From Blastocatellia bacterium (GTDB taxonomy: Bacteria > Acidobacteriota > Blastocatellia > Pyrinomonadales > Pyrinomonadaceae): a DNA stretch of 60,275 bases. The notes beneath the pieces were generated by a model, which was not told the origin of the DNA, did no database searches, and saw only the letters and a list, made by a program, of their open reading frames with translations. Positions 39,570 through 57,708 of this stretch are shown one piece after another (within the stretch, counting starts at the first letter, position 1; each line of letters begins with the position of its first letter). The stretch covers positions 1-60,275 of the forward strand of contig JACCVY010000005.1 of assembly GCA_013697915.1 (NCBI GenBank), read 5' to 3'. A program made the translations under genes and the position numbers.

Positions 39570-40232
39570 ATGAATAGACAGGGCGTTTTGCGTCGCATCA
39601 ATGAAATTGGTGTCGTTCCTGTGGTGCGAGCCGCATCTCCCGAAGAAGCAATTCAGGTTATCGAAGCAATCAAGATGGGTGGCCTTTCCATTCTGGAAAT
39701 TACGATGACTGTGCCACACGCGGTAAAAGTGATCGAAGAGGTTGTGGATCGCTATGGCGGTGAAGTAGTCGTGGGAGCTGGCACCGTACTGGATCCCGAA
39801 ACTGCTCGTGCTTGCATTCTCGCGGGCGCGAGCTTCGTCGTTAGTCCGTCTTTCAACCTCCACACGATAGAGTTATGCCGTCGTTACTCTATTGCAGTTT
39901 TCGCTGGTGCGTTGACGCCAACGGAGGTAGTGACTGCATGGCAGGCAGGCGCCGACGCCGTCAAGGTTTTCCCTTGTGGCGCCGTCGGCGGCGCAAAGTA
40001 TCTGGCTTCGCTCAAGGCGCCCTTGCCGCAGATCGAGATGATTCCGACGGGCGGCGTCTCACTGGCGACGGCAGCAAGTTTCATGGCCGCTGGCGCGTTT
40101 GCACTTGGCGTCGGTGCCGACCTTGTCGACATAACGGCGATTCGATCAGGAGAGCCAGAAAAAGTGACGCAGGCAGCGCGCGCTTACGTTGCGGCCGTCG
40201 GAGACGCGCGAGGCTCTCTTTCGCCTAGGTAG
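39570..40232 (+). CDS. eda: 2-keto-3-deoxy-6-phosphogluconate aldolase
   Basis: KDPG/KHG-type class I aldolase of 220 residues. The Schiff-base Lys is in ADAVKVFPCGAVGG, the Glu of the active site in SILEITMTVPHA, and the phosphate-binding loop in PTGGVSLATAA. It cleaves KDPG-type acids into pyruvate and glyceraldehyde 3-phosphate. AGGAG precedes the ATG at the right spacing. It is the last gene of the plus-strand sugar island. Confidence 0.93.
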   Translation: MNRQGVLRRINEIGVVPVVRAASPEEAIQVIEAIKMGGLSILEITMTVPHAVKVIEEVVDRYGGEVVVGAGTVLDPETARACILAGASFVVSPSFNLHTIELCRRYSIAVFAGALTPTEVVTAWQAGADAVKVFPCGAVGGAKYLASLKAPLPQIEMIPTGGVSLATAASFMAAGAFALGVGADLVDITAIRSGEPEKVTQAARAYVAAVGDARGSLSPR

Positions 40233-40565
40233 CATTTTGATTATTCTTGGCACGCTGCTGATTCTGAAGGTGCGTTTTAGCTTCACGCTCAGTGCGAAAA
40301 GACTTTGAGAAGTAGCGGCGTCGGCCGTTGCTGTGTGCTCAATACGAGCGTCGTGGTTCCTTACCATTCATTACCATCCGATATCCGCGGCATCCAGTTA
40401 TTTTTGTCGACATAAGCCCGGATGGAGACGCGAACGTTTGTTGTCACGGACTAATCAGATCACAGAGTCGCCCCTGAATCGCTATCGCAAGATCGCGCAC
40501 TGTTTTGGTTGCAATTCAGCTTATGATTAGACTTCCGACATTGGGCTTCAAATTGTTGTCGTCAT
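40233..40565. other. Convergent gap at the right edge of the sugar island
   Basis: This 333-base region between convergent eda and the TDT gene holds no supported gene. On the minus strand, 40223-40325 gives a 37-residue open fragment with RYFSKSFRTEREAKTHLQ, which has a coding flavour but no start and no wider support. Confidence 0.3.
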
Positions 40566-41624
40566 TCAAGGGTTACGAACTATCGAGGCGGCACTTGTTC
40601 TCCGTCCCATTAGATTGTGAATTAGCCCGACAAAAGCGGCGAGCCACGCCGCGAGTGCAACGAAAACGAAGTAGCGTGGGATGAACAGCAACGGCTCAAA
40701 GCTGATCGCCTTCGACAGTTGAAAAGTACAGACCGTGTACATCCCGAGCGGGAATACCATGCCCCAGTACTGTGGCTCATAGCGGAGAGGAAAACGCTTG
40801 TAGATGTGGCGCCAGAATCCGAGTATGAACAGCAACGGAATCCACCAGGTGCCCGCCGCCCAGAAGAACAAAGTGAATCCTTTGAGAAATGATGAAATCT
40901 CTCCGAGAAAGCTCCACTCGGGGGCGGCGATAATGAGCCGTGCTCCGGCTAGAGTGGTGATGGCGACTGCGCCCATGTTGATCCAATAAGGCGGAGTAAG
41001 CGTTACGGTCGTCAGTTTGACGAACGTGAAGCGGTAAAAGATAAGCGTGATGAGCAACAAGTAAAGCATGCAGCCGAGCAGAAACATGCAGAGCGTGAAG
41101 AACAGCAACGACTCACGGTGGGCGGTAAAGTAATCTGCCAGCAGCGTTCCTAAGACAGAAATTGATTGTGTTGCTACTGTCGCCAGCAACCACGTACCGC
41201 TGATTCCGGTTTCCAATGGAGGTTTATCCTCCCGCACCGTCACCGCGGTGAAGAAGGTGTACATGATTAGTATCCAGAGCAAGAATCCGATGAACCAAAG
41301 AACAGCCGCTGCTCTGTACTGTCCGGCGACGATCACTAACTGACTGCCGAGCACGCAGGTTCCGGCGACGACCGTGAAAAAACCGGGACCGCGAGCATGG
41401 TCCATGATGTCTGCTTTAACGCGCGGGAAGAAACGTACCAGACGAATCAGCAGCAATAACCAAAGAATAAGGTAGGCGATCAGATTTATTGCCAGCAGCA
41501 ACCACGCCGCTGGTTTCATCTTCAGTTGAAACGCGGCGATGGATATGATTCCCGTCGCCATCACCAGGGCGAAGTATCCTGGAAACAAGTTGGCCGCTGC
41601 CGCGCTAACCTTGCCGTTCTTCAT
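40566..41624 (-). CDS. TDT-family transporter (TehA/Mae1/Ssu1-like)
   Basis: Inner-membrane protein of 352 residues with about ten hydrophobic helices. The N-terminal segment NLFPGYFALVMATGIISIA and the RGPGFFTVVAGTCVLGSQL loop are typical of the tellurite-resistance/dicarboxylate transporter family, whose members export dicarboxylates, sulfite or small anions. Bases 41036-41081 (part of LLGCMLYLLLIT) are duplicated at 18089-18134 on the other side of the island. The gene is intact. It is the last gene of the long minus-strand run led by the redox operon. Confidence 0.85.
   Translation of the reverse strand: MKNGKVSAAAANLFPGYFALVMATGIISIAAFQLKMKPAAWLLLAINLIAYLILWLLLLIRLVRFFPRVKADIMDHARGPGFFTVVAGTCVLGSQLVIVAGQYRAAAVLWFIGFLLWILIMYTFFTAVTVREDKPPLETGISGTWLLATVATQSISVLGTLLADYFTAHRESLLFFTLCMFLLGCMLYLLLITLIFYRFTFVKLTTVTLTPPYWINMGAVAITTLAGARLIIAAPEWSFLGEISSFLKGFTLFFWAAGTWWIPLLFILGFWRHIYKRFPLRYEPQYWGMVFPLGMYTVCTFQLSKAISFEPLLFIPRYFVFVALAAWLAAFVGLIHNLMGRRTSAASIVRNP
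41036..41081 (+). repeat. 46-nt direct repeat, right copy
   Basis: Same orientation and 45/46 identical to 18089-18134. It lies inside the intact TDT coding sequence, which suggests this copy is the original and the left one was duplicated or left behind during island insertion. Confidence 0.9.
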
Positions 41625-41634
41625 CTTTGTTTCA

Positions 41635-41871
41635 CTAGATCAAAGGCAATCCAAAATCCTGAACGCCGGGACTCTCCTTCTCAGCCTCTTCATCACAGCG
41701 TTTGCAGTCTAGCTCAAAGCCAATGCGCGAGGCGCGACCAGCCTCGGTTTGAACCCAGGACCGTGTTGTGAGCGGTGGGTTGTGGCGCACATGTTGAAAA
41801 TGTCCACACTTAAGCTCAGCACGCCAATCGCCTTGCTCATCGGTATCAAACCCTCTGATTTGCTGTTTCAC
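41635..41871 (-). CDS. DUF3565 small protein
   Basis: Protein of 78 residues with the DUF3565 features: IRGFDTDEQGDWRAELKCGH near the N-terminus, then QHVRHNPPLTTRSWVQTEAGR and the Cys pair LDCKRCDEE. The three Cys and two His could bind a metal. Function unknown. It starts 11 bases from the TDT gene on the same strand and 20 bases after the cupin gene, so all are likely co-transcribed. Confidence 0.83.
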   Translation of the reverse strand: MKQQIRGFDTDEQGDWRAELKCGHFQHVRHNPPLTTRSWVQTEAGRASRIGFELDCKRCDEEAEKESPGVQDFGLPLI

Positions 41872-41891
41872 GAAGCGCTTCCAGGAGAATG

Positions 41892-42230
41892 CTACGCCCG
41901 GATCATGATGAGCAGCATTTTGAACTTAGTTGCTGCCTTCACCGCATGAGGTTGATTCGCCGGCAGGATAATCGTCTCCCCTTGACGCACTTTGAAACTC
42001 TCGCCAGCGATCTCGATGTCCGCCTCTCCGTCTGTGACTACCACAAGTGCATCGAATGGCGCGGTGTGCTCGCTGAGGCCCTCGCCCACGTCAAACGCGA
42101 AGAGGGTAACGGTGCCGCCCTTGTTCTTCAGCATGACACGGCTCACGATAGACCCATCCTGGTATTGCAACAGGTCAACGAGTTGCTTGACCTCGGCAGA
42201 TCGAATCAAACTTTGATCTTGATCACTCAT
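41892..42230 (-). CDS. Cupin-domain protein
   Basis: Single-domain cupin of 112 residues. The first cupin motif segment is FDVGEGLSEHTAPFDALVVV and the second LPANQPHAV. The His in SEHTAP and HAV suit metal binding, though the full HxH pair is reduced. The start ATG 42230 is preferred over an in-frame codon at 42308 that would overlap the methyltransferase. Small cupins of this type often accompany stress or redox genes; the substrate is unknown. Confidence 0.8.
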   Translation of the reverse strand: MSDQDQSLIRSAEVKQLVDLLQYQDGSIVSRVMLKNKGGTVTLFAFDVGEGLSEHTAPFDALVVVTDGEADIEIAGESFKVRQGETIILPANQPHAVKAATKFKMLLIMIRA

Positions 42231-42282
42231 AATGGTTGATTTACTCAAGTCGGCACAACTTATCAAAAGTGCTGTTAGGTGT

Positions 42283-43086
42283 TCAGCGTTTGCTGACGGT
42301 AATGGCAACAGCCCCTAATTGTTTGCGGTGGCGCCGAAAGACGGACCTCATCTCGAGGACTCGCCCTCGAGCCTCTGAATCACGAAGTAGATTCCAGGCA
42401 AAGCGCAACGCGCCGGCTAAGCCTTCGTCACGAATGAGTCGGCCTGGCTCCAATAAGCTCATAGAGGCCGTGTCCACTGATTGAACTTCGAATCCTTCGG
42501 ACTCTAAAAGCGAGCGCCACTCTGAAATGGCCAGCGGCCTTACGCCATGATGGACAACACCCGTCAGTGCTCTTTCGGTTTCTCTTTTCGCATTCTCGTC
42601 GAGATTATCCGACACGAGGCACATCTCATGAATGCCGTACCGACCACCGCTCTTAAGTAGACGATAAGCCTCCCGCACGATCTGGCGCTTCATCTCTTCA
42701 GTCTGCATCGTGAGCATCGCCTCGCCATAAACGACCGTTGAGCTGTGGTCGGGAAGACCCGTGTCCGAGGCGCTTCCGACAACACAACGTTGTCGCTCTC
42801 CCTTGAGAAATCCACTGACAATTTTCGCTGCCGCTGGGTCCCGCTCGACGGCAGTATAGGAGGCTGGGGCTAACTCGAGCGTGAGTCGAGCCGTAACGCC
42901 CATGCCGGGCGCGAACTCAACCACGTTATCCGTGCCTTGGATACGAAGCGCGTCCAGCATGCGCCGAGTGAGTTGCATGCCGCCCGGTCGGAGCACGCGT
43001 TTACCTAAGCGGGCTAAGACCCAGTGACCCGGCATCTTCTCAGTCTTTAGTCCTTTGCCTATGGCAAGTGTGGTAGTGTTTTCCAA
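42283..43086 (-). CDS. Class I SAM-dependent methyltransferase
   Basis: Methyltransferase of 267 residues with the Rossmann motif VVEFAPGMGVTARLTLELAP (motif I, near 55-74), acidic post-I residue in YTAVERDPAA, and a motif IV-like VVYGEAMLTMQ. The start is a TTG at 43086 supported by AAGGAG six bases upstream. The acceptor is unknown. It follows the hemerythrin gene by 148 bases in the same orientation. Confidence 0.78.
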   Translation of the reverse strand: MENTTTLAIGKGLKTEKMPGHWVLARLGKRVLRPGGMQLTRRMLDALRIQGTDNVVEFAPGMGVTARLTLELAPASYTAVERDPAAAKIVSGFLKGERQRCVVGSASDTGLPDHSSTVVYGEAMLTMQTEEMKRQIVREAYRLLKSGGRYGIHEMCLVSDNLDENAKRETERALTGVVHHGVRPLAISEWRSLLESEGFEVQSVDTASMSLLEPGRLIRDEGLAGALRFAWNLLRDSEARGRVLEMRSVFRRHRKQLGAVAITVSKR

Positions 43087-43234
43087 TTCCGTCTCCTTAT
43101 GCGCACAGAAAGATCCCCCAAGTGATTCAGCAATGACTGTGCCGTTGATTCCTGCCCAGTTTTTGTAGGACTTGTCGGATGAGTTGCGAGAATTGACGGA
43201 ATGATCGCGGAATTCTACGCGTTGGGCAGAACAA

Positions 43235-43792
43235 CTATCGATCGAATTCGATCCCTATCTTAGCAATTCGGGGAGGAATATTTTCCAGTTCGTTCTGTAG
43301 GCGATCAAACAGCCTGCCGACCGTTTGCTGATCAAAAAGTAACGACGGCCAAACATAAGTTTGCGTCTCTTCCAGACGGTTGTGAACTTCCAGACGCTTC
43401 GCGATTGTAGTCAGGCGCTGCCGCAAGTCGCCAGCTTCTTCGTCGCTCACCAGTTGGCTCCCTGTCATCTCGCGCATAACCTTGATCATTAGCGCAAGTT
43501 CCGTCATGAAAAAATCGTGATCTGAGCGCAAACGCAAGAGTAGGCTGTGTGCCTCCTCGAAAGTGGGCAAACTGCCTTTGCCGGTAAAGAGCGAAGGAGC
43601 AGCATTGGCGAGAGCAGGAAAGAGATGCAGATTCTCGGCGCGAATGTGAACTGCCAGGCGAGCCCAGAAGAGATCGAGCAACTCGAACGCACGAGCAATG
43701 TTCGGCTTTGCTAACTCCGCGTCGAGTTCAGCGAGTAGGTGGGCCAGCGAAGCGTGGTCGTCTTCCAGGAGAGACTCGACTGGGTTCTTCAT
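43235..43792 (-). CDS. Hemerythrin-domain protein
   Basis: Cytosolic four-helix di-iron protein of 185 residues. The iron-ligand His/Glu pattern is in LLEDDHASLA, IRAENLHLFPAL, LRSDHDFFM and EVHNRLEETQTYVWP. Such domains sense or bind O2, NO or related species. Its start overlaps the stop of the small membrane-protein gene by ATGA, indicating translational coupling in the redox operon. Role in oxygen or NO protection of the redox enzyme is inferred. Confidence 0.87.
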   Translation of the reverse strand: MKNPVESLLEDDHASLAHLLAELDAELAKPNIARAFELLDLFWARLAVHIRAENLHLFPALANAAPSLFTGKGSLPTFEEAHSLLLRLRSDHDFFMTELALMIKVMREMTGSQLVSDEEAGDLRQRLTTIAKRLEVHNRLEETQTYVWPSLLFDQQTVGRLFDRLQNELENIPPRIAKIGIEFDR

Positions 43793-44067
43793 CGTTTCAA
43801 GTAGCCGGAACTAGTGAAACGACGCGAGGCCGGACGCCACCAGAAAATCAGCGTAAGAGTAACGACAAAGCAGATGCCCGAAGCAACAACGAGCGGCAGC
43901 AATGCCGAAAAGCGATGCGCCAGCGCAGCTTCGACGGTGGCGGCGAGAATCCAGAGCTGCGCGACGTTGACCATCACGAGCAGGATGAGTCGCGCCTGGG
44001 CCACAGCCGTTCGGCCTTTGCCGGCGAGATTGTGAATGGGTCGCGCTTTGATTTGTTCGCTTTGCAT
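43789..44067 (-). CDS. Small two-helix membrane protein
   Basis: Protein of 92 residues. The basic N-terminus MQSEQIKARPIHNLAGKGR is followed by hydrophobic helices LILLVMVNVAQLWILAATV and LLPLVVASGICFVVTLTLIF, and a basic tail. The start was chosen as the first ATG after the Rieske stop, which lies 13 bases upstream. A longer frame overlaps the Rieske gene and is rejected. It is coupled to hemerythrin by ATGA. No family name is certain; similar small subunits sit in respiratory operons, so it may be a structural membrane subunit. Confidence 0.65.
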   Translation of the reverse strand: MQSEQIKARPIHNLAGKGRTAVAQARLILLVMVNVAQLWILAATVEAALAHRFSALLPLVVASGICFVVTLTLIFWWRPASRRFTSSGYLKR

Positions 44068-44080
44068 TCTTTGTTTCGAA

Positions 44081-44665
44081 TTAGAGCAAGACTTCGCTGC
44101 TACCAGCTTCTCTGCCGACGGCCCACACTTCTCCATCGGCGCGTACTTCCAGCGAAATCGGATCGAGCGGTCTCGGTGGCGGGCCATACAAAACATTTCC
44201 GGTCTTCGCGTCAAACGCCCCGTCGTGACAAGGACACTCGAGCCGCTGATGCGCGCGTTCGAAATAAACGGGACATGAAAGATGTGTGCATTTCTGGCCG
44301 AAGGCATGAAGCTCACCATCGAGCGTGCGGACGAGAATTGCGGAGTCTTTCGCTGTCGGGTAACGGAAATTCAGAGAGGAGCCAGGAGCGAGCGTCTCCG
44401 CGCCCTCGATCTTTGACGGTGGAAGTTGTGGCGTGCGGCGCGCGTCGAACGCTGCCTTTCCAGCGAAACCTGCCGCGCCTACGAACAATGCGGCCGAAGT
44501 AAGTCCGAGAAAGTTGCAGAACTCCCGCCGAGTCACCTGTGCTTCCTCTTCGCGGTCATACGGAAAGTCGTGCTGATGCGGCGCAGTGGCTGAGCGCACA
44601 TCGCTTTCGTCTGATCGTGTGTCAGCCAGAACTTTATCGATCGTTTTGCCGAGATTAGAACTCAT
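44081..44665 (-). CDS. Rieske [2Fe-2S] protein with membrane/Tat-type N-terminus
   Basis: Protein of 194 residues. The Rieske cluster ligands are in CTHLSC and CPCHDGAF (two Cys and two His). The N-terminus has a hydrophobic segment after [20 protein letters not shown], consistent with twin-arginine export and membrane anchoring. Its start overlaps the stop of the 4Fe-4S subunit gene by 11 bases. It probably relays electrons between the membrane cytochrome and the molybdopterin oxidoreductase. Confidence 0.9.
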
Positions 44666-45302
44666 TGCTCTTGTCCGTGTGTTCAACTTGCAGGTCGATC
44701 CATGATTCGCTTGCTGGTTGCGACTCAGTTTTCACGCGTCCTGCAAACACGCCACAACCATCGACCTCAACCTCGTCCGCCTCGGTCGGCAACATCAGAT
44801 AAACTTTGGTTTCGACTTTCTGATTGCCGAACACGTGCGCGTTCACGGGCTTGGTGCGGCGCAGCGGAACGATGTCTTCATACTTGCCAAATGTGATCGC
44901 ACCCGTCGGACAGACGCTCGCGCACATCGGCTTCAAGCCCTCACTAGTACGATCGAAACACATGTCGCATTTCATCTGGAGGTGCATCTCGGTGTTGTAC
45001 TTTGGCACGCCGAATGGACAGGCGTTAACGCAGTTGCGGCAATCCAGGCAGCGCGGTTTCAATGCGGAAAGGACAATGCCATCTTCTGTAGTCTTGATCG
45101 CGTCCGCTGGACAAACCAGCGCACACGTCGGCTCAACGCAGTGCATGCAGACGGTGGGCATCGTGGCGGTTGTCTCTGATCGATCAAGGTAGTCAACATA
45201 GATCATCGAATAGCCTTTGTGCGTCCCGCACTCTCGGCACGCCGCAACGCAAGCACGGCAGCCAATGCAGCGCTGCGGATCGATGAACATTGTTTCTTCC
45301 AT
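44655..45302 (-). CDS. 4Fe-4S ferredoxin-type electron-transfer subunit
   Basis: Protein of 215 residues with four [4Fe-4S] Cys clusters: [44 protein letters not shown] and [11 protein letters not shown] with [10 protein letters not shown]. This is the HybA/NrfC/DmsB-type pattern, an electron conduit for molybdopterin oxidoreductases. The ATG at 45302 ([12 protein letters not shown]) is chosen over an upstream in-frame start at 45368, which would translate the low-complexity repeat. Stop overlaps the Rieske start. Confidence 0.92.
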
Positions 45303-45314
45303 AAGAACCTCTGG

Positions 45315-45404
45315 TTTTGGGTCTTTGGTCTTGGGCTTTTGGTCTCTCTTACTCAGGTCGGGACTCAACCATCAAAGTCCAAAGACCAAAGTCCAAAAAA
45401 CAAA
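45315..45404. repeat. GGTCTTTGGTCTTGGG-type inverted repeat, second element
   Basis: Arms TTTTGGGTCTTTGGTCTTGG (45315-45334 and beyond) and CAAAGTCCAAAGACCAAAGTCC (45372-45393) are largely complementary. It is the same repeat family as 36877-36975, and again directly precedes a start codon (on the minus strand). Confidence 0.65.
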
Positions 45405-45408
45405 TCAT

Positions 45409-47631
45409 TTACCTAAACTCACTACGCGACGCGCCTTTGCGTTTTTCACCCAGAATCGGAAGTTGTCTGGAGTGAATCTTCTCGATGCGCGCTGCGCACG
45501 CTTTGAACTCAGGAATTTTGGAAACGGGATCGAGCGCCGGGTTTGTCAGTTGGTTCACTGCCAGCTCTTCACCCCAATGATAGGGAATGAAGATCGTGTC
45601 CGGTCTGATCGTGCGAACAATCAAAGCCGGGAAGATTCCGTCGCCGCGCCTGGAGACCACCCTAACCCGCTCGCCATCGTTGACCTTCAACTTCATCGCC
45701 GTTTCCGGATGGATCTCGACATACGGTTCGGGGCACTGCTCTACCAGAAATCCAATGCGGCGCGTCTGATTGCCGGAAAGATATTGATATACGACTCGGC
45801 CACTGGTCAAAATCAGTGGATACTCTTCATCAGGCGTCTCCTGCGGCGGCGCGTATTCGACTGCGTGAAACTTCGCCTTGCCGTCCGGATGATAAAAGCG
45901 ATCTTCAAAGAGGCGCGGAGTACCCGGATGATCTTCGGTCGGGCAAGGCCAGAAGATACCGTTGTTCTTCTCGATTTTTTCCCAAGTGATGCCGTAATAG
46001 TCGGCGTTGCCGCCGCGCGAGGCGACGCGCATCTCGTCAAAAATTGCTCGCGGGCTATCAAACTCAAAGTACTTTTCGCGGCCCATGCGGCGGGCAATCT
46101 CCTGGATAATCCACCAGTCGGCGCGCGCTTCTCCGGGTGGCTCGGCGGCCTTGTTGATTTTCAGAACGCGGCCTTCCCCATTTGCCGTCACGCCTTCGTC
46201 TTCGCTCCAGGTGCTGCCGGGCAGAACAACGTCGGCGTAACGCGAGCCTTCGGACATGAAGAAGTCAATGCAAACATAGAAGTCCAGGCCTTCGAGCGAG
46301 CGGCGCACTTCATTCGTGTCTGGCAAACTCACCATCACGTTGTTGCAGATCGAGAGCAGGCCGCGAATTTCGCCCTCTTGCATCTTCTGAAACATCTCAA
46401 CTACGGATACGCCTGCCTGCGGCAACTCTTCTTCAGGCAAGCCCCAAACCTCGCAGACGTACTTGCGATGTTCAGGATTCAAAATTGAGCGCTGACCGGG
46501 CAGTTGATCAGCCTTCTGTCCGTGCTCGCGGCCGCCCTGTCCGTTGCCTTGTCCGGTGATGGTGCCGTAACCACGTCCGGGCGCGCCGATATTTCCTGTC
46601 GCCAGCACTAGATTGATGTAGGACAGCACGTTGTTGACACCGTGCGAGTGGTGCTCGATTCCGCGCGCGTGCAGGACCATCGAAGTCTTAGCGCGACCGT
46701 ACAGCAGTGCGGCCTGAACAATCTTTTCTGCCGGCACGCCTGCAATTTCCGCAGCAACTTGGGGCGTGTAGCGGGCCACGGAGACGCGCGTTTCTTCCCA
46801 ATCATTCGTGCGGGCGCTGATGAAGTTCTGATCAATCAAATTCTCTTCGATCAAAACGTGCAGCATGCCGTTCGCAAGAGCTACGTCAGTTCCGGGCTTA
46901 AGCTGCAAATGCAGATCGCCCTGGCGAGCGGTTGGAGTCTCGCGCGGGTCCACTATGATCCAGCTACCACCATTATCGCGTTGTTGCCAGAGGAACTTGT
47001 TAAGCACGGGAAATGTCTCAGCACAATTTGATCCGGCAATCAGTAGAACTTCGGCGAGTGGAATGTCATCCCACGGATTCGCGGCGCGATCTATTCCAAA
47101 AGCCTTATTGTTCGCTGCCGCAGCCGAGACCATACACAGCCGCCCGTTGTAATCAATGTAGCGGGTACCGAGGCCGGCTCGCGCAAACTTGCCCATCAGA
47201 TAAGTTTTCTCTGTTGTGAGCGACGAGCCTGAATAAACGCCGATGGAATCTTTGCCATGCCTGGTTTGCAGTTCTCTGAATTTCGAGACTACAAGATTGA
47301 GCGCTTCGTCCCAGCTCGCGCGCTCAAACATGCCGTTACGCTTGATGAGTGGATGCAACAGCCGATCGGGATGGTGAACCTGTAAGTAAGCCGTAACGCC
47401 TTTGGGACACAGGCGGCCTTCGTTCACGGGAAAATCGTAACGAGGCTCGAAACCTACGACATGATTGTTCTCGACGAGGAGATTCATGCCGCACTGCACC
47501 CCGCAGTAGGGGCAGTGCGTCGGCACGACTTTGTCTATCACCCGGTCCGCGCGCCAGCCTCCGTACGGCGCATCATGAAGATGCGGACCGAACGCTTCGA
47601 TGATCTTTTGGAGATTTTCGACCTTGCTCAT
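45409..47631 (-). CDS. Molybdopterin oxidoreductase catalytic subunit (nitrate-reductase-like)
   Basis: Large Mo-bisMGD enzyme of 740 residues. The N-terminal [4Fe-4S] motif is in HCPYCGVQCGM with a fourth Cys in GRLCPKG. A Cys Mo ligand lies in NGRLCMVSAAA, as in NasA/NarB nitrate reductases, rather than a Sec or Ser. Further cofactor segments are GTITGQGNGQGGREHGQ and VVLPGSTWSEDEG. The C-terminal cofactor-binding domain is complete. No twin-arginine signal is present, so it is cytosolic. Nitrate reduction is the best guess; other oxyanions are possible. The gene follows the cytochrome-b-like membrane gene by 75 bases. Confidence 0.9.
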   Translation of the reverse strand: MSKVENLQKIIEAFGPHLHDAPYGGWRADRVIDKVVPTHCPYCGVQCGMNLLVENNHVVGFEPRYDFPVNEGRLCPKGVTAYLQVHHPDRLLHPLIKRNGMFERASWDEALNLVVSKFRELQTRHGKDSIGVYSGSSLTTEKTYLMGKFARAGLGTRYIDYNGRLCMVSAAAANNKAFGIDRAANPWDDIPLAEVLLIAGSNCAETFPVLNKFLWQQRDNGGSWIIVDPRETPTARQGDLHLQLKPGTDVALANGMLHVLIEENLIDQNFISARTNDWEETRVSVARYTPQVAAEIAGVPAEKIVQAALLYGRAKTSMVLHARGIEHHSHGVNNVLSYINLVLATGNIGAPGRGYGTITGQGNGQGGREHGQKADQLPGQRSILNPEHRKYVCEVWGLPEEELPQAGVSVVEMFQKMQEGEIRGLLSICNNVMVSLPDTNEVRRSLEGLDFYVCIDFFMSEGSRYADVVLPGSTWSEDEGVTANGEGRVLKINKAAEPPGEARADWWIIQEIARRMGREKYFEFDSPRAIFDEMRVASRGGNADYYGITWEKIEKNNGIFWPCPTEDHPGTPRLFEDRFYHPDGKAKFHAVEYAPPQETPDEEYPLILTSGRVVYQYLSGNQTRRIGFLVEQCPEPYVEIHPETAMKLKVNDGERVRVVSRRGDGIFPALIVRTIRPDTIFIPYHWGEELAVNQLTNPALDPVSKIPEFKACAARIEKIHSRQLPILGEKRKGASRSEFR

Positions 47632-47706
47632 ATAGAATTAGCCGCGGATGAACGCGGATTCACACAGATCAGAAAGCCCCTTGGACGTTCTTTGGTTTTC
47701 ATTGTC

Positions 47707-48774
47707 CTATCCGCGTCTGTCTGCCTTAATCTGCGGCCCAACTTCTTCGTGTTTTATTAACGATGCATATGCCAGTCCGCGTATGACGCGCTTGCAGCGC
47801 GGACAGTAGTCTTGCCAAACGTGTCCATCGTTCATCTTGTAATCAAACCCAAGCTTATCCACGACCGTTTTGAGATCGTCGAGCCACATCTCAGCTACAA
47901 ACTCAACGCCGCAGCGCGGACAGACCGCTTGTGGCATCTCACGCGCGCGCCTTTGATAAAGTTCAACGCCAATCGATGCTGGCCGTTGAATCACATGAAA
48001 GAGTTTGCCAAACGGTAAGTAAAACAACGTCATGATCACAACCGCCTGATGCGACAGCGCGATGAACGAATACATATAGCCGTGCAGCCAGAGGCTTGAT
48101 GCGGTCAGCATCAATCCCGTGACGCAAATCGCGATTAAGAGCAGATGCGGTACGAAGTCGAATAGAAACTGTTGCAAAGCTATCGCGCCACGATCGTGCA
48201 AGCGGCGATGAATCGCTATCGCGCAACCGGCGAGCACCATGATTGCCGTGAAATCTAGCGCGTGAAAGGTGACCCAGGCAATCGCGTTGCGCCCGTCCAT
48301 TACGTTCAGCGGAAAACCAAAGACGTAAGCACGATATCCACGCTGGCCTTCCAGTTCAAAGTGCACCCAGCCAAACACCAGAGGGAAAGTAATAAGCGCC
48401 GAGATGACGCATCCCCACATGATCAACTGATGCATCAGCCAACGGGAGAAGCCGCGGCGAAAGATAAACTTCTGGACTGCCATACCACCGACCAGCGTTT
48501 TCGCAGCGCTGCTGGTATTAGCAATCAAATTCTTTCGGTCTTGAAATAACTTCCATCCGCGCCGCCAATAAACGCGTGTCGCTGGCCGCTGTAGCCAGAT
48601 AGCATAACGAAACACAACCGCGCCGAACGCGACGACGCTGGCTACCGTGTAGCCAAAGAGCGCCGCGTCATAGTGTTCGAGATTTCGCGATCCGACAACG
48701 ATCAAGACCGTCAGTCCCGCGGACGCGGCCAGGGACATAAGCACTGCGGGGCGATGGTTCGTTTCGGTCGGCAT
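47707..48774 (-). CDS. Cytochrome-b-like membrane subunit with C-terminal zinc ribbon
   Basis: Protein of 355 residues with about six transmembrane helices. His residues typical of heme b ligands occur in RWLMHQLIMWG, WVTFHALDFT, DFVPHLLLIA and SFIALSHQAV, resembling NarI/DsrM-type quinol-linked subunits. After the last helix, a C-terminal soluble part holds two CxxC pairs (CPRCGVEF and CPRCKRVI), separated by about 40 residues, which look like a zinc ribbon or rubredoxin-like site. It is the first gene of the redox operon. The cytochrome assignment is inferred from helix and His pattern. Confidence 0.72.
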   Translation of the reverse strand: MPTETNHRPAVLMSLAASAGLTVLIVVGSRNLEHYDAALFGYTVASVVAFGAVVFRYAIWLQRPATRVYWRRGWKLFQDRKNLIANTSSAAKTLVGGMAVQKFIFRRGFSRWLMHQLIMWGCVISALITFPLVFGWVHFELEGQRGYRAYVFGFPLNVMDGRNAIAWVTFHALDFTAIMVLAGCAIAIHRRLHDRGAIALQQFLFDFVPHLLLIAICVTGLMLTASSLWLHGYMYSFIALSHQAVVIMTLFYLPFGKLFHVIQRPASIGVELYQRRAREMPQAVCPRCGVEFVAEMWLDDLKTVVDKLGFDYKMNDGHVWQDYCPRCKRVIRGLAYASLIKHEEVGPQIKADRRG

Positions 48775-49322
48775 TGATGTGTAAGCGTGATACCGAATCT
48801 GCTTCCCAACACACTACCTGCGCAACACGTCAAGGCAAGCGTAAAGCCACAATACGATATCTCCGCTAGCGAGTTTGGGGAGGATACCACACGTCGCAAC
48901 TCGTAAATAGAATCTAGCTGTGGCGAATCTCTCGCAAGTTCTAATCCGACTGCACAATATTCCTCGCACGCCGCGTCCATTGGTCCAAACCAATCAATGT
49001 TTGTGTGCAATTCTCCAATCATTGATTGGCACAACCGTTGCCCTAGTGATCGCGGAGGGCGAGCACGAGGACGTTGCTTGCTTCTGCATGGCTTTGGCGA
49101 TCAGTTTCAGTTGACTCGTGTGCTCGGATGGTCAGCCAATCCGGTGCTGGCACCTGCTCTTGGTGGCTGCGAGTTTTCTCTCAGTGATCCTGAGTAACTT
49201 TCCGCACTCAGAGGCCCATACTGTCAATAGCTTCGACATTTCCTTCTGGCTAAGACGGCACACTCATTGCTGCGACTAAAGTTAAAGAAACATTTCTGCG
49301 GGAGGAAAGGTGGAGGAACTTT
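48775..49322. other. Divergent control region between redox and stress islands
   Basis: This 548-base gap has no supported gene. It contains an FNR/CRP-layout dyad TTGGT-CCAA-ACCAA (48980-48993) overlapping one arm of a perfect 10-base inverted repeat CCAATCAATG/CATTGATTGG (48990-48999 and 49020-49029). An AGGAGG-like GGAGGAA lies just before the CBS gene. Confidence 0.45.
48980..49029. promoter_or_regulatory. Overlapping dyads in the divergent region
   Basis: TTGGTCCAAACCAA is a 5-4-5 palindrome with the spacing of CRP/FNR-type sites. The neighbouring CCAATCAATG ... CATTGATTGG pair has a 20-base loop. Position between redox and stress operons makes oxygen- or redox-responsive control plausible but unproven. 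Confidence 0.35.
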
Positions 49323-49814
49323 ATGAAAGTCAAAGAGATCATGACCCCCAATGCCAAGGTTTGCGCTCCTACGGATACTCTGGCGCATGCTGCCAGATAT
49401 ATGTGGGATAACGACTGCGGGATATTGCCGATCATTAAGGACGGAGGGAAGGTGATTGGGCTCATAACTGATCGCGACATCTGTATGGCCGCTGCGATAA
49501 ACAGTGGGAATCTTTCAAACATTGCCGTCGAGGACGTTATTAGCGGCAAGGTCTATTCAGCGAACCCTGAGGATGACGTTCGCAAGGCGTTGGAAACTAT
49601 GCAGGAACACAAGATTCGCCGCCTGCCAGTTGTTGCGGGCGATGGCACACTTGACGGCATCCTGTCGATGAACGATGTGGTACTTAGAGCCCAGGACGCA
49701 AGTGACAAGAAGAATCCGGACTTAGCCTACGCCGACGTAGTCAACACCTATAAAGCGATTTGCGCGCATCCGCTGCCGTTACGACAGACGGAGGCCGCGG
49801 TCGTCGGCGTGTGA
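49323..49814 (+). CDS. Tandem CBS-domain protein
   Basis: Protein of 163 residues with two CBS motifs: MKVKEIMTPNAKVCAPTDT and VEDVISGKVYSANPEDDV, each followed by the LPxxxxxGxxxGxITxxD-type strand (VIGLITDRDI and LDGILSMNDV). Such pairs bind adenine nucleotides and sense energy state. A Shine-Dalgarno-like GGAGGAA precedes the ATG. It heads the plus-strand stress island. Confidence 0.92.
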   Translation: MKVKEIMTPNAKVCAPTDTLAHAARYMWDNDCGILPIIKDGGKVIGLITDRDICMAAAINSGNLSNIAVEDVISGKVYSANPEDDVRKALETMQEHKIRRLPVVAGDGTLDGILSMNDVVLRAQDASDKKNPDLAYADVVNTYKAICAHPLPLRQTEAAVVGV

Positions 49815-49937
49815 GCTAAAGCTAACTCGGCGGAGGCTCTAGAAGAGCGGCCCAATCGAATGAACGTCGCTGCGACATAGGCAAGGCGGCGCTACCGAAT
49901 AGCGTTATACCCCCATGGTTGACGCGATGGAGGACTT

Positions 49938-50609
49938 ATGGAACGCAGAAAAACCGATAATGAAATCAAACAGCAAGTGCTGGGCGAGTTGACGTGGGAT
50001 TCACGGATCGCGTGGTCGGAGATGGGGGTGGAGGTGCGGGATGGCGTAGTAGCGTTGACGGGCGTCGTCTCAAGCTATGCCAACAAATCGGCTGCCCAGC
50101 AAGCGGCCCACCGCATCAGGGGCGTCCTCGATGTGGCGAATGACATCCAGGTAAGACCAGACCCGTTGATTGCGAGGACCGATACCGACATCGCCCGTGG
50201 AATTCGTCAGGTCTTGGAATGGGATGCACTAGTGCCCGACGAACGGATCAAGTCAACAGTCTCGGATGGTTGGGCCACGCTCGAAGGGGATGTTGATTGC
50301 TGGCGTGAACGTGAAGACGCCGAGCAAGCAGTGTTGCGACTTGTGGGCGTGATAGGCGTGACTAACATGCTAACCATCAAGCCAAGCCAAATTGCCGCGG
50401 AAGCTTTGCGCAACGAGATCGAATGCGCACTCGAACGGCGGGCTGATCGCGAGGCTGAACGACTGCGGATTGAGTGCCATGACGGCACGGTAGATCTGTT
50501 CGGACGAGTTCATTCATGGCAGGAGAAGCGCGCGGTAATCGGTGCGATTAGCCATGCGCCCGGAGTGTCGGCGGTCAAGGACCACATCCGCATCGACCCC
50601 TATTTTTAA
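49938..50609 (+). CDS. Protein with three BON domains
   Basis: Protein of 223 residues containing three consecutive BON domains of about 65 residues each. The G-x-V segments are VRDGVVALTGVVSSYANK, VSDGWATLEGDVDCWRER and CHDGTVDLFGRVHSWQEK. There is no signal peptide, so it is cytosolic or peripheral. BON proteins bind membranes or cope with osmotic and envelope stress. Its position in a stress island agrees. GGAGGACTT precedes the ATG. Confidence 0.9.
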   Translation: MERRKTDNEIKQQVLGELTWDSRIAWSEMGVEVRDGVVALTGVVSSYANKSAAQQAAHRIRGVLDVANDIQVRPDPLIARTDTDIARGIRQVLEWDALVPDERIKSTVSDGWATLEGDVDCWREREDAEQAVLRLVGVIGVTNMLTIKPSQIAAEALRNEIECALERRADREAERLRIECHDGTVDLFGRVHSWQEKRAVIGAISHAPGVSAVKDHIRIDPYF

Positions 50610-50698
50610 TTCGGGGTTACGATCAAAGCGAATAGAAGCTACGGGCTCGTTAAGGGAAGCATATCGCTTCTGGAAGGAACGTCGCGTCGCAACCACTA

Positions 50699-51022
50699 AT
50701 GATTACCTATGCGAAGGATGAGGGAAACCTTACTCATTTGATGTCTGCTGCGCTCTATGGTCAGACAGAGGCGGTGGAAGCTCTCCTCCGAAAAGGTGCG
50801 GATGTGAATGCGCGAAATCGTGAGGGACGTACGGCACTAATGTTTGCTGTCATCAACCTGCATAATGCTACCGTGCAAACGTTGTTGCAGTTTGGAGCGG
50901 ATGTCAATGCCCAAGCTGCTGATGGGTGTACACCCCTGATGCTTGCCGCGTCTAGCGGCGATGCGGAAATTACCCGGGCGTTACTGAATAGCGGTGCTAA
51001 TGCTCTTTACGCGACAAAGTGA
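50699..51022 (+). CDS. Ankyrin-repeat protein
   Basis: Small protein of 107 residues with about three ankyrin repeats: THLMSAALYGQTEAVEALL, GRTALMFAVINLHNATVQTL and GCTPLMLAASSGDAEITRAL, each with the GADVNAxxxDG-type loop. It is probably a protein-protein interaction module. It ends 35 bases before the first tandem universal stress protein. Confidence 0.88.
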   Translation: MITYAKDEGNLTHLMSAALYGQTEAVEALLRKGADVNARNREGRTALMFAVINLHNATVQTLLQFGADVNAQAADGCTPLMLAASSGDAEITRALLNSGANALYATK

Positions 51023-51057
51023 ATGAGCGCCAGTTGAGGATCGAGATTACCGCAACT

Positions 51058-52059
51058 ATGAAACAAAGAATGAAAATCCTGATTGGTTATGACGGATCTG
51101 GTTGCGCCGAAGCGGCACTAGATGACTTGCAGCGAGCTGGACTTCCTTCCGAAGTCGAGGCCTTAGTGCTGTCTGTAACTGAGGTCTCACTACCACCGCC
51201 GCCCCCGTCGAGTTACGAGATTCTTGAGCAGGCGCGTGCAGTGCATGTCCCAGCCGACATTACGCACGTTTTTGCCAAGGGGTCACCCGCAATGAAAGAA
51301 GCACAATCTCTCGCGGAGCGTGCCGCCGTTCGACTGCGAGCCAATTTCCCAGGTTGGGAGATCACCGCAGAAGCTTCGGTTGGTTCACCTGCGCGGGAAC
51401 TGGTTAGGAAAGCCGACGAGTCGAAACCCGATCTAATCGTCGTTGGCTCGCATGGACGCTCAGCGGTGGAAAGGCTCTTACTCGGAAGCGTTTCACAGGG
51501 AGTGTTGACTTATGCTCGCTGTTCAGTGCGTGTTGCTCGCGGTCGGGTTGAAGAGCCCGACACGCCGGTCCGGATCGTCGTTGGTGTAGACGGCTCGCCG
51601 GCAAGCGCAGCCGCAGTGCGCGAAGTGGCGTCACGACTATGGCCGATCAAGAGCGAAGTGCGTCTCATCGGAGTGAACGACCTTCTGACTCCGACCTTTA
51701 TCGGACGGATTTTCCCTCCAGTTTCAGAGATTATTGATGATAGTAACCAAGCCGATCGCGAATGGCTGAAAAAGATATTGGAAAATTCTTCTCAGCAGTT
51801 GCGGCAGTCCAAGTTAAAAGTCTTAACCGAAATTCGCGATGGCAATCCAAAGCGCGTTCTGGGCGAAGCTGCAAAAGAGTGGGGCGCCGATAGCATCTTT
51901 GTCGGCTCGGTGGGCTTCAGCAATCCGTTCGAACGCTTTGTACTTGGGAGCGTATCAGCTTCGGTCGCTGCGCGCGCGCACTGCTCTGTCGAGGTTGTAA
52001 GACCACGGAAAACTAGCGGAGGTACTCATGAGCGCCAATCCGATTATTCGCGTAACTGA
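51058..52059 (+). CDS. Tandem universal stress protein (UspA x2)
   Basis: Protein of about 333 residues with two UspA domains. Each starts with the KILIGYDGSGCA-like or VVGVDGSPASA nucleotide-binding strand and ends with GSHGRSAVERLLLGSVS or VGSVGFSNPFERFVLGSVS, the G-2X-G-9X-GS ATP-binding loop. The chosen ATG 51058 gives MKQRMKILIGYDGS; a GTG at 51019 overlapping the ankyrin stop is less likely. The next gene starts within its last codons. Confidence 0.9.
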   Translation: MKQRMKILIGYDGSGCAEAALDDLQRAGLPSEVEALVLSVTEVSLPPPPPSSYEILEQARAVHVPADITHVFAKGSPAMKEAQSLAERAAVRLRANFPGWEITAEASVGSPARELVRKADESKPDLIVVGSHGRSAVERLLLGSVSQGVLTYARCSVRVARGRVEEPDTPVRIVVGVDGSPASAAAVREVASRLWPIKSEVRLIGVNDLLTPTFIGRIFPPVSEIIDDSNQADREWLKKILENSSQQLRQSKLKVLTEIRDGNPKRVLGEAAKEWGADSIFVGSVGFSNPFERFVLGSVSASVAARAHCSVEVVRPRKTSGGTHERQSDYSRN

Positions 52060-52396
52060 TAAACAAAAAGATAAGATGGAAACAGCAACGGTCGAAAACG
52101 ACAAGAGCACAGGATTCGAATTCGCAAATCTGGCAGCTGCGGCGGCTGAAGGAAAAATGCTGGTCGAAGACTTTGTCGAGATTGGTAAAAGGAAAGCACA
52201 GCGCCTGATTAGACGGGGGCGTGAAGCCGGCGAAGATTGCTTGGACGAAACAACGCACTACATCAAACACAATCCGTGGCAGTCGGTTGCGACCGCCGCC
52301 GGCGTTGGGGCCTTGGTCGGAGTGTTTTTCGGTTGGACCTTTTTTCGCGAGCAGGCAAATAGAAAACGCGCCTCCCCCGGGAAGCGCGTGGGCTAA
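52028..52396 (+). CDS. DUF883/ElaB-like membrane-anchored protein
   Basis: Protein of 122 residues. An N-terminal helical half is followed by the motif HYIKHNPWQSVATAAGVGAL and a single transmembrane helix (VGVFFGWTF), ending in a basic tail. This resembles DUF883/ElaB/YqjD proteins that anchor ribosomes or stress factors at the membrane. Start lies 32 bases inside the end of the universal-stress-protein gene, indicating coupling. Confidence 0.75.
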   Translation: MSANPIIRVTDKQKDKMETATVENDKSTGFEFANLAAAAAEGKMLVEDFVEIGKRKAQRLIRRGREAGEDCLDETTHYIKHNPWQSVATAAGVGALVGVFFGWTFFREQANRKRASPGKRVG

Positions 52397-52531
52397 TTGA
52401 AACGAGTTGTTCGCTCACTCTTCGTCAACATACGTGTAGCAGACTCACTTGATTCGTATTTCAGCAGCCCGAATTCCGGCGCTTCTCGCGCAGCAGCTCC
52501 GTGCTGTTTGAATTACAACTGAGTAAAGCTC

Positions 52532-53497
52532 ATGAACGAAAAGATGAAAATACTCATTGCTTACGACGGCTCTGAGTGCGCTGATGCCGCACTCGATGAT
52601 CTGAAAAGCGCTGGATTGCCCAAAACCGCTGAAGCAATAGTCATGTCCCTGGCCGACGTCTTTCTGCCCCCGCCGATCAATGAGGAGGTCGATAACACCT
52701 TTCCGATGTCCGTGCCGGCGGGCGTGCGGCGTGCTCACGAACGTGCGGAGCGCAAAGTAAAGGAAGCGGAAACAATGGCAAAACGGGCGAGTGAACAAAT
52801 CAAGAAGAGTTTTCCGGAGTGGCGTGTTCGCCACGAGGCTCTCGCTGATTCACCCGCCTGGGCGCTTTTAAGGACAGCCGACGAATGGAAGGCGGATCTT
52901 ATAGTAGTTGGGGCACGCGGCCACTCTGTTCTGGGTGGAAGGCTGATACTTGGTAGCGTCTCACAAAGAGTTCTCTATGAGGCGCGTGGCTCTGTTCGCG
53001 TCGCCCGAAGTCGGAGCAGGGACGCCGACTCTCCGCTTCGGCTTCTCATCGGCGTCGACAATTCCACCTACTCCACCGCCGCAGTGGAGGCCGTTTGCCG
53101 ACGCGAGTGGCCCAGCGGAACTGAAGTGCGCTTGCTGGCCGTTGTCGATACCGTGATGGCGATTACGCCAGATCCATCTCAACCGTTAGTTTTGAAATGG
53201 ATCGAGGTAGGAGATGAAGACAACTGGGATCAGGTCCGTCAGATCTTCGAAACATCAGCAGATAAACTGCGCTCCGCCGGACTCAATGCGGTTATAATGA
53301 TCAGAAGAGGCAACCCCACAGACCAACTCCTTGAAGAAGCAGAAAGCTGGGGTGCGGATTGTATTTTCCTGGGCCCGAAGGGCACGCGAGGAATAGACCG
53401 CTTACTTCTCGGTAGCGTCTCCTCGGCAGTTTCAGCGCGCGCGAACTGCTCGGTTGAGATTGTGAGGCCAAAGTCGATGGCTTCGACGAAAACTTAG
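52532..53497 (+). CDS. Tandem universal stress protein (second copy)
   Basis: Protein of 321 residues with two UspA domains, parallel to the gene at 51058. The first domain begins KMKILIAYDGSECADAALDD, ends VGARGHSVLGGRLILGSVS, and the second contains LLIGVDNSTYSTAAVEAV and GPKGTRGIDRLLLGSVSSA. The two paralogues in one string suggest duplication. ATP-binding loops are intact in both halves. It is followed by a 389-base gap before phosphoketolase. Confidence 0.9.
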   Translation: MNEKMKILIAYDGSECADAALDDLKSAGLPKTAEAIVMSLADVFLPPPINEEVDNTFPMSVPAGVRRAHERAERKVKEAETMAKRASEQIKKSFPEWRVRHEALADSPAWALLRTADEWKADLIVVGARGHSVLGGRLILGSVSQRVLYEARGSVRVARSRSRDADSPLRLLIGVDNSTYSTAAVEAVCRREWPSGTEVRLLAVVDTVMAITPDPSQPLVLKWIEVGDEDNWDQVRQIFETSADKLRSAGLNAVIMIRRGNPTDQLLEEAESWGADCIFLGPKGTRGIDRLLLGSVSSAVSARANCSVEIVRPKSMASTKT

Positions 53498-53886
53498 TAA
53501 CGGCAAATTCTGCTAGCATGCGAATCACTTCTCACTCTTGAGGCCGCATTGAAATTCGGCGCGGCAGTCGTCCCATTTCATCAAGGACACGCTTTCATCG
53601 GGAACTGCTCCGAAGCGAAGTTGCCGATTCCGATGTTTGAAACGGCAATCGCTTTGTCGAGACTTTGCGGTAGCCGGCGAATGCGAAGCAGTCGCATCAC
53701 GGTGATCAACCTCCATTATGGTCAAGCCTTGAAGAGTTCGGTGGGCGCAAGTTGGCAAGCCAGAGGTTATGGGCACCCGAGTCAGTTCACGCGCGTTGCG
53801 TTATTTAGGATGGGCGACGGCTGCGATCATGACGCTTGCCGCCTTGGGAATGTTTGCGACAAGTTGAACAATTGCTAATAAGCATT
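53498..53886. other. Intergenic region before phosphoketolase
   Basis: This 389-base stretch has short open frames on both strands but none with a start, Shine-Dalgarno and recognisable domain. No repeat of the families seen elsewhere was found. It probably carries the promoter of the phosphoketolase gene, but none is convincing by eye. Confidence 0.35.
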
Positions 53887-56280: not shown

Positions 56281-56469
56281 GAGCGATGATGTTTCAGTTT
56301 TAAGCATTTCCGGTATGTCTCTCGTGGGAAAGAACAGCATCGGACTTCGACGTTTCCGTATGGAGGATTGCTGATATTCGGGCTGATCGTGCTGACGCTA
56401 CCGCCCCTAAGGGCGGCAAAGTCAAGCGGCTTCAAGAACCATATGATAGTTCGCTGAGGTATTTCGCGC

Positions 56470-57708
56470 ATGAATGTTCTCATACTCAACTGCGGTAGTT
56501 CTTCGGTTAAATTTCAGCTCATCTCGACCGATCTCGAGCGCATTGAGCAGAACACCGATGAGCGGCTCGCCCACGGGATCATCGAACGCATTGGCGGCGA
56601 AGCCATTATCACACTGCTCGCGACAGGTAAACCGCCACAACGCTCCACCGCGCCGCTTCGTGAAACGCGGGCGGCGGTTGAGCTTATCTTGCGGTGGGCG
56701 TGTGCCGAAGAATCGGGAATCAAAGAGGTTAAGAGCGTCGCAGACATCCACGCCGTCGGGCATCGTGTCGTGCATGGCGGCGAACAGTTTAAGCAGTCCG
56801 TTCTGATTACCGATGAAGTCTTGCGCGGGATCGAAGATTGCATTGACCTGGCACCGCTCCATAATCCGGCAAACATCAAAGGCATCAACGCCGCGCGCGA
56901 AGTATTTGGCAAGGGACTACCACAAGTCGCCGTCTTCGACACCGCGTTTCATCACACGCTCCCCGAGCATGCTTATCTCTACGCACTGCCTTACCAGCTT
57001 TACCGGCGACACCGCATTCGTCGTTACGGTTTTCACGGCACCTCGCATCGCTACGTTGCGTATCGCTACCGTCAATTGAAGAACATTCAGCGCGACCAGA
57101 CAAACATCATTACGCTTCATCTCGGCAACGGGTGTTCGGCGGCCGCGATTAAAAACGGTAACTCGATTGATACTTCGATGGGATTGACACCGCTCGAAGG
57201 CCTGGTGATGGGCACGCGCTCCGGCGACCTTGATCCGGCGATTATCGAGTTTGTCGCCGCGAAAGAGGGCTTGTCGGCGCAGGAAGTCGAGACACTATTA
57301 AATAAGCAATCGGGGTTGCTGGGGTTATCAGGCTTGACGGATGATATGCGCGAACTGCTTGACGAAGCACGTGAATCAGACGATCGCCGCGCTAAAATCG
57401 CCATCGAAATCTTTTGTTATCGCGCACGTAAATATATCGGATCTTACCTCGCCGCCATGAACGGCGCAGATGCTGTCGTGTTCACTGGCGGCATCGGCGA
57501 AAACTCTGCTGAAGTGCGCGCAAAAATCTGTGACGGTTTAGCTTGGCTTGGTCTTGAATTAGATTCCGAACGCAACCACGCGCTGACCGCCGGGCATGAG
57601 GGTGTCATCAGCAGCGACGGTTCACGTCTCGCCGCTTACGTCATCCCGACAAATGAAGAATTATTAATTGCACGCGACACGGTGCGCGTAGTCTATGGCG
57701 TGCCGTAA
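56470..57708 (+). CDS. ackA: Acetate kinase
   Basis: Converts acetyl phosphate and ADP to acetate and ATP, cytosolic. The 412-residue length matches the family. [12 protein letters not shown] at residues 7-18 and [14 protein letters not shown] near 187 are signatures; the central [10 protein letters not shown] holds the catalytic Arg/His region. Downstream is a Glu/Asn-rich [15 protein letters not shown]. It lies 189 bases after phosphoketolase, so together they run the phosphoketolase bypass. Confidence 0.96.

What the first reader, a model, noticed from the sequence alone, without database searches (positions are those of the whole stretch)
43235..48774. Six-gene redox operon combining Mo enzyme, two FeS proteins, cytochrome b with zinc ribbon, membrane subunit and hemerythrin
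The minus-strand order is cytochrome-b-like subunit, molybdopterin oxidoreductase with Cys Mo ligand, 4Fe-4S subunit, Rieske protein, two-helix protein and hemerythrin. Stop/start overlaps occur at 44655-44665 and 43789-43792, so they are translated as a unit. NasA-like catalytic subunits normally work with a diflavin, ferredoxin or small cytochrome partner, not with a Rieske plus quinol-type membrane subunit. The set looks like a membrane-linked nitrate- or oxyanion-reducing complex with an O2/NO-sensing protein attached, and I cannot name it as a described complex.
Basis: partly seen in the sequence, partly recalled or inferred. Interest (0 to 1): 0.65.

Follow-up and report, generated by a model that had tools for sequence, protein, structure and literature searches.

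The report
Membrane-bound Nas-type nitrate reductase operon
These soil bacteria carry a conserved gene set that appears to bolt a normally soluble nitrate-reducing enzyme onto a membrane cytochrome and a Rieske protein, giving a so far unnamed kind of nitrate reductase found in several phyla.

Summary
Cytochrome b, Mo subunit, four-cluster FeS protein, Rieske and a two-helix protein (DUF6755) form a core that recurs in one block in Acidobacteriota, Planctomycetota, Verrucomicrobiota, Armatimonadota, Sumerlaeota, Myxococcota and cultured Deinococcus. Hemerythrin is an accessory whose position varies.

Nitrate is the best-supported substrate. The Mo subunit scores highest against NasC and has the Cys-Met motif of NasA/NapA. 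A nitrate transporter (NarK) or a SLAC1-type channel fills one operon slot, never both. In seven genomes NarK is fused to the cytochrome b. Neighbours are NrfAH, NirA/NirB, qNorB, NnrS and hemerythrins. The window's own genome has no detectable NarG, NapA, NrfA or NirA/NirB, but has qNorB.

The cytochrome b folds like NarI. The likely mechanism is NarGHI-like: quinol oxidised in the membrane, nitrate reduced in the cytoplasm; the Rieske's role is unknown. A published survey says Nas/Nap/Aio catalytic subunits never have such FeS and anchor partners; this module is an exception. I found no name for it in the papers I could search. New variant of a known kind; no experiment exists.

The parts
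47707..48774 (-). NarI-like b-type cytochrome, membrane anchor, with C-terminal four-Cys (zinc-ribbon-like) tail
   Evidence: A1: invariant H115, H138, H242, H260 and C285, other three ribbon Cys >=90%; AF2 model pLDDT 88.7; NarI and EtfD top structural matches, Z 11-12 against 6.3 for the next; H242/H260 align with NarI H187/H205; weak PF02665 in relatives
45409..47631 (-). Mo-bisPGD catalytic subunit, Nas clade, Cys166-Met167 motif
   Evidence: NasC 884.8 bits, Fdh-alpha 676, NapA 301, narG 72; YNGR[LF]CMV[SA]A motif in all module members; C40/C43/C47/C75, C166, M167, R368 shared with NasA and NapA
44655..45302 (-). four-[4Fe-4S] electron-transfer subunit (DmsB/FdnH type)
   Evidence: Fer4_11; 16 Cys in four motifs plus two more; closest solved chains are FDH beta, PsrB/NrfC-like and NarH
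44081..44665 (-). Rieske protein with twin-arginine signal anchor
   Evidence: PF00355; invariant R46-R47, C126/H128, C131, C144/C146; H147 >=90%; closest solved chains AioB and bc1/b6f Rieske
43789..44067 (-). two-helix membrane protein, DUF6755 family
   Evidence: PF20540 weakly in the window protein, strongly in relatives; same place in Deinococcus operons
43235..43792 (-). hemerythrin-domain protein, accessory
   Evidence: PF01814; H13, H49/E53, H92, H137/E141 present; position variable in relatives
42283..43086 (-). SAM methyltransferase, operon neighbour
   Evidence: PF08241; also linked in L086 and L054
41892..42230 (-). cupin protein; a paralogue follows qNorB in the same genome
   Evidence: PF07883; L113 4830-5165, 167 bits
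41635..41871 (-). DUF3565 protein
   Evidence: PF12088; next to the transporter in Pyrinomonadaceae operons
40566..41624 (-). SLAC1/TDT-family anion channel in the slot that NarK fills in the closest relative
   Evidence: PF03595; L086 has NarK there, TIGR00886 246.6 bits, below its 311.7 cut-off

Best explanation
A quinol-linked, membrane-anchored nitrate reductase built from a Nas-clade catalytic subunit. Quinol (in Acidobacteriota probably menaquinol, from general knowledge) is oxidised at the NarI-like cytochrome b. Electrons pass through its heme(s) to the four [4Fe-4S] clusters of the FeS subunit and on to the N-terminal [4Fe-4S] and the Cys-ligated Mo centre, which reduces nitrate to nitrite on the cytoplasmic side. 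NarK, or here the SLAC1-type channel, moves nitrate in and nitrite out. Depending on the lineage, nitrite goes to NrfAH (ammonification), to NirA/NirB (assimilation), or is excreted with NO handled by qNorB, hemerythrin, RIC and NnrS. The Rieske and DUF6755 are core subunits; the Rieske sits outside the membrane and is either a second quinol/cytochrome c-side electron port or a structural partner. Shown: gene content, synteny, motifs, predicted fold, fusion, co-occurrence. Inferred: electron path, sidedness, quinol as donor, nitrate as substrate, the channel's cargo. The confidence refers to nitrate reductase plus membrane/quinol linkage, not to the Rieske's role.
For: Catalytic subunit: NasC best model; Cys-Met motif invariant. 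Fixed core in seven phyla, on Deinococcus plasmids directly followed by an MFS / nitrate-nitrite transporter. Transporter slot: NarK or SLAC1, never both on the same strand. NarK fused in frame to the cytochrome b in seven genomes. NrfA/NrfH linked in L078-L080 and L030, NrfA in L081. NirA/NirB, ABC-transporter genes and NarK in Verrucomicrobiota/Acidobacteriota loci. NrfA associated with the module in 59 related genomes, 9/19 against 5/40, Fisher p 0.005. NapA absent in all 59, NarG in 12; in six of 14 NrfA+ genomes (G003, G005, G012, G023, G037, G041) this module is the only nitrate reductase found. NarI-like fold. Positive-inside pattern puts N-terminus, C-terminal ribbon and the H115/H260 pair in the cytoplasm; Mo and FeS subunits have no export signal, only the Rieske has one.
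Against: No biochemistry. The Mo subunit fails the NasC cut-off (884.8 of 1100) and passes the Fdh-alpha model (676 over 666), so family models alone do not settle the substrate. NIR_SIR and NrfA are absent from the window's own genome, so nitrite has no visible next step there. The Foldseek E-value to NarI is weak (0.08). A histidine equivalent to NarI H66 is not at the expected place, so the number of hemes is open. The NrfA/cytb association is not corrected for phylogeny, and the relatives are mostly incomplete MAGs. NarK hits lie below the TIGR00886 cut-off.
Confidence: 0.78

Rival explanations
1. The Mo, FeS and Rieske subunits are exported together by the Rieske's Tat signal, as in arsenite oxidase, and the enzyme works in the periplasm.
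For: Only the Rieske carries an invariant twin arginine; its best solved match is AioB; AioA is thought to have branched from the Nas lineage (PMC7331816).
Against: NarK/SLAC1 linkage and NarK fusion imply nitrate is needed inside; ribbon and heme-side charges point to the cytoplasm; no TorD/NarJ-type chaperone was recognised nearby.
Confidence: 0.14
2. It runs in reverse or on another substrate: nitrite oxidation with the Rieske passing electrons to cytochrome c, or formate oxidation.
For: A Rieske fits an electron-accepting outlet; Fdh-alpha model passed.
Against: Cys-Met instead of the Sec/Cys-His of formate dehydrogenases (general knowledge); NrfAH, NirA/NirB and transporters fit nitrate reduction.
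Confidence: 0.06
3. In the Pyrinomonadaceae branch alone the enzyme has drifted to an NO/stress role and nitrate is only its ancestral substrate.
For: Own genome lacks NirA/NirB and NrfA; hemerythrin, NnrS, RIC, qNorB and Usp neighbours; separate clade in the tree.
Against: Same active-site motif; NarK retained in L086 and L085, NrfA in L078 and L081.
Confidence: 0.1

Closest known systems
NarGHI respiratory nitrate reductase
   Same: Mo subunit, four-cluster FeS subunit and NarI-fold cytochrome b; NarK next to it; expected cytoplasmic nitrate reduction
   Different: catalytic subunit is 740 aa Nas-clade with Cys ligand, not the ~1200 aa NarG (72 bits of a 1084 cut-off); Rieske and DUF6755 added; no narJ seen
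NasC/NasA/NarB assimilatory nitrate reductase
   Same: catalytic subunit family, Cys-Met motif, nitrate assimilation context in Verrucomicrobiota
   Different: those use flavoprotein or ferredoxin partners; PMC7331816 states no member of this clade has four-cluster FeS or membrane-anchor subunits
Haloarchaeal Nar (Haloferax mediterranei nar operon)
   Same: nitrate reductase operon with a Rieske (NarB) and a cytochrome b (NarC), Q-cycle coupling proposed (PMC2483277)
   Different: NarG-type catalytic subunit on the outer face; 486-aa cytochrome b
AioAB arsenite oxidase
   Same: Mo subunit plus Rieske, Rieske profile closest to AioB
   Different: AioA has no Cys ligand (PMC7331816); no four-cluster FeS protein or cytochrome b
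Bradyrhizobium japonicum narK-bjgb-flp-nasC
   Same: Nas-type nitrate reductase operon that includes NarK and an NO-defence globin (PMC4724949)
   Different: Bjgb and Flp instead of hemerythrin; no membrane cytochrome or Rieske known to me

Membership tests
NasA/NasC assimilatory nitrate reductase (catalytic subunit) | sequence family of the Mo subunit | tested here: inconclusive
   best model NasC, 884.8 bits, below the 1100 cut-off; Fdh-alpha cut-off passed
NasA/NasC assimilatory nitrate reductase (catalytic subunit) | Cys Mo ligand followed by Met | tested here: met
   C166-M167 invariant and shared with two NasA and one NapA
NasA/NasC assimilatory nitrate reductase (whole system) | soluble, flavoprotein or ferredoxin partner | tested here: not met
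   four-cluster FeS, NarI-like and Rieske partners in all complete loci; a diflavin is linked only in Verrucomicrobiota
NarGHI | NarG catalytic subunit | tested here: not met
   71.9 bits of 1084; no NarG in the own genome
NarGHI | NarI-fold diheme b cytochrome | tested here: inconclusive
   Z 11, prob 0.96-0.99, H187/H205 equivalents present, H66 equivalent not found
NarGHI | quinol:nitrate activity | not testable with these tools
   needs protein
NapA | NapA sequence family, periplasmic | tested here: not met
   301 bits of 930; no signal peptide on the Mo subunit
Arsenite oxidase AioAB | AioA family without amino-acid Mo ligand | tested here: not met
   174.6 of 359 bits; Cys166 present
Formate dehydrogenase (Fdh-alpha) | Sec/Cys-His at the Mo ligand | tested here: not met
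   Cys-Met

The most novel reading that the evidence does not exclude
The Rieske is a working electron carrier: quinol oxidation is split as in the bc1 complex, one electron going to the outer Rieske and cytochrome c, the other through heme b to the Mo site. This would be a nitrate reductase with built-in bifurcation of quinol electrons, and a Nas-Rieske combination of the kind from which arsenite oxidase could have come.
Probability: 0.12. Interest if true: 0.88.

Novelty: new variant of a known kind. Interest (0 to 1): 0.62.

Why it matters
If confirmed, it is an additional architecture of nitrate reductase, spread over at least seven phyla, and an exception to a published rule about the DMSO reductase family. 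Surveys that look only for narG, napA and nasA with their usual partners would miss it; in six of 14 NrfA-bearing relatives it is the only nitrate reductase found. It could explain Acidobacteriota that carry nrfAH without narGHI or napAB (such strains are reported in PMC13362970; whether those strains hold this module was not tested), and it links a bacterial SLAC1-type channel to nitrate.

Tried and rejected
FNR-type sites (TTGAY-N4-RTCAA): 11 in the window with one mismatch against 6.9 expected, none exact; no regulator claim. Promoter and terminator scans: no more than shuffled sequence. Rfam: nothing in 40000-50500. qNorB co-occurrence with the module: no association, p 0.49. NirK: only weak matches below the cut-off. 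Formate dehydrogenase: rejected on the Cys-Met motif. Tree: references are few and NapA sits on a very long branch, so it shows only that module Mo subunits form one clade apart from the seven references. Literature: ten searches gave no description of this gene set; only open-licence PMC papers were searched. A first look for Rieske, DUF6755 and cupin failed because of wrong reading frames, redone. Foldseek matches other than NarI and EtfD are mostly GPCRs and rhodopsins: helix-bundle noise.

Full report
OBSERVATION. The window is contig C136 of a draft genome, 97.4% complete, in a family whose named relatives are Pyrinomonadaceae. The six ORFs, order and overlaps are as described. Domains: no Pfam for the cytochrome b alone, Molybdopterin for the Mo subunit, Fer4_11, Rieske, nothing over threshold for the two-helix protein, Hemerythrin; then methyltransferase, cupin, DUF3565 and SLAC1. 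With a lower threshold the two-helix protein hits DUF6755 weakly, and its relatives hit it strongly.

CONSERVATION. A search with the cytochrome b found it in 20 of 59 relatives, one of them (G038) only a weak 33% match that I leave out, so 19 are counted as carriers; 37 further loci came from public genomes. Cytochrome b, Mo, FeS and Rieske lie together in every locus whose contig is long enough, in Acidobacteriota, Planctomycetota, Verrucomicrobiota, Armatimonadota, Sumerlaeota and Myxococcota, and on Deinococcus plasmids, where the order is cytochrome b (annotated as an MFS transporter), Mo, 4Fe-4S, Rieske, DUF6755, then a transporter, annotated as nitrate/nitrite transporter in one record. 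In a sample of 297 Acidobacteriota genomes 48 carry the cytochrome b (28 of 167 genera). Hemerythrin is not fixed: it is after the core here, before it in L081 and L090, a different type in L080, and absent from the operon of the closest relative L086.

SUBSTRATE. The Mo subunit scores highest with NasC but under its cut-off. All module members have Cys-Met at the Mo ligand, shared with two NasA and one NapA. The transporter slot after the core is NarK in some operons and the SLAC1-type channel in others; no locus has both on the same strand. The closest relative, with a 92% identical Mo subunit, has NarK exactly where the window has SLAC1 (L086). In L030, L123, L126, L127, L128, L129 and L130 a NarK-like protein and the cytochrome b are one ORF; two of these were confirmed against TIGR00886. 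NrfA and NrfH are linked in L078, L079, L080 and L030, NrfA in L081. In Verrucomicrobiota the neighbours are NarK, a kinase-phosphatase protein, NirA or NirB and a diflavin; in L036 also ABC-transporter genes and NirB. Near other members lie qNorB, flavohaemoglobin, an Rrf2 regulator, NnrS and RIC. In 59 relatives NrfA goes with the module, 9 of 19 against 5 of 40, p 0.005, uncorrected for kinship. NapA is absent from all 59 and NarG present in 12.

OWN GENOME. No NarG, NapA, NrfA or siroheme nitrite/sulfite reductase was found, and no NirK over cut-off; qNorB is present, followed by a cupin paralogue of the window's cupin. The product nitrite therefore has no assigned next step here.

MECHANISM. 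The cytochrome b model (pLDDT 88.7) matches EtfD and NarI, Z 11-12 against 6.3 for the next entry. Its H242 and H260 align with NarI H187 and H205; H115 is the likely partner of H260 by spacing. NarI's H66 has no clear equivalent; the invariant H138 is a candidate. Charges put the N-terminus, the loop before H115 and the C-terminal ribbon inside. The FeS protein has 16 cysteines in four motifs and two more. The Rieske has an invariant twin arginine and the extra cysteine pair seen in bc1/b6f-type Rieske proteins (the meaning of the pair is general knowledge); its closest solved relatives are AioB and bc1/b6f Rieske. From these: quinol to heme b to FeS to Mo, nitrate reduced inside, as in NarGHI. 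That path is inferred. The Rieske's task is open.

KNOWN OR NEW. A 2020 survey of the DMSO reductase family states that no members of the clade holding Nas, Nap and Aio have the four-cluster or anchor subunits (PMC7331816). Haloarchaeal nar operons also hold a Rieske and a cytochrome b, with a NarG-type enzyme (PMC2483277). Strains with nrfAH but neither narGHI nor napAB are reported (PMC13362970). In Bradyrhizobium a Nas-type reductase makes NO and is expressed with an NO-defence system (PMC4724949), which is the model for reading hemerythrin here as protective. I found no paper naming this set in ten searches of open-licence papers, which does not show that none exists.

Noticed in passing
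L030 7638-9821; L123 8249-10567; L126 3240-5564; L127 4214-6835; L128 4298-6553; L129 2837-5158; L130 5017-7275: A NarK-like transporter and the NarI-like cytochrome b are fused in one reading frame; two confirmed with TIGR00886. Probably why the Deinococcus cytochrome b is annotated as an MFS transporter.
   Followed up: partly
window 49323-57708: Divergent from the operon lies a run of CBS, universal stress, DUF883, phosphoketolase and acetate kinase genes (BON-like and ankyrin-like ORFs by eye), resembling a low-oxygen or stress island.
   Followed up: no
L113 2523-5165 (own genome, contig C34): qNorB followed by a paralogue of the window's cupin; the cupin may have an NO-related role.
   Followed up: no
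L044 8159-9922, L047 7701-9731 and relatives: Verrucomicrobiota nitrate operons carry a protein with PP2C phosphatase and protein kinase domains next to NarK.
   Followed up: no
L082 6933-10565: A NarG-type enzyme lies a few kilobases from the module in G027, so one genome can hold both kinds.
   Followed up: partly
window 33465-35717: 750-aa ORF with no Pfam match.
   Followed up: no
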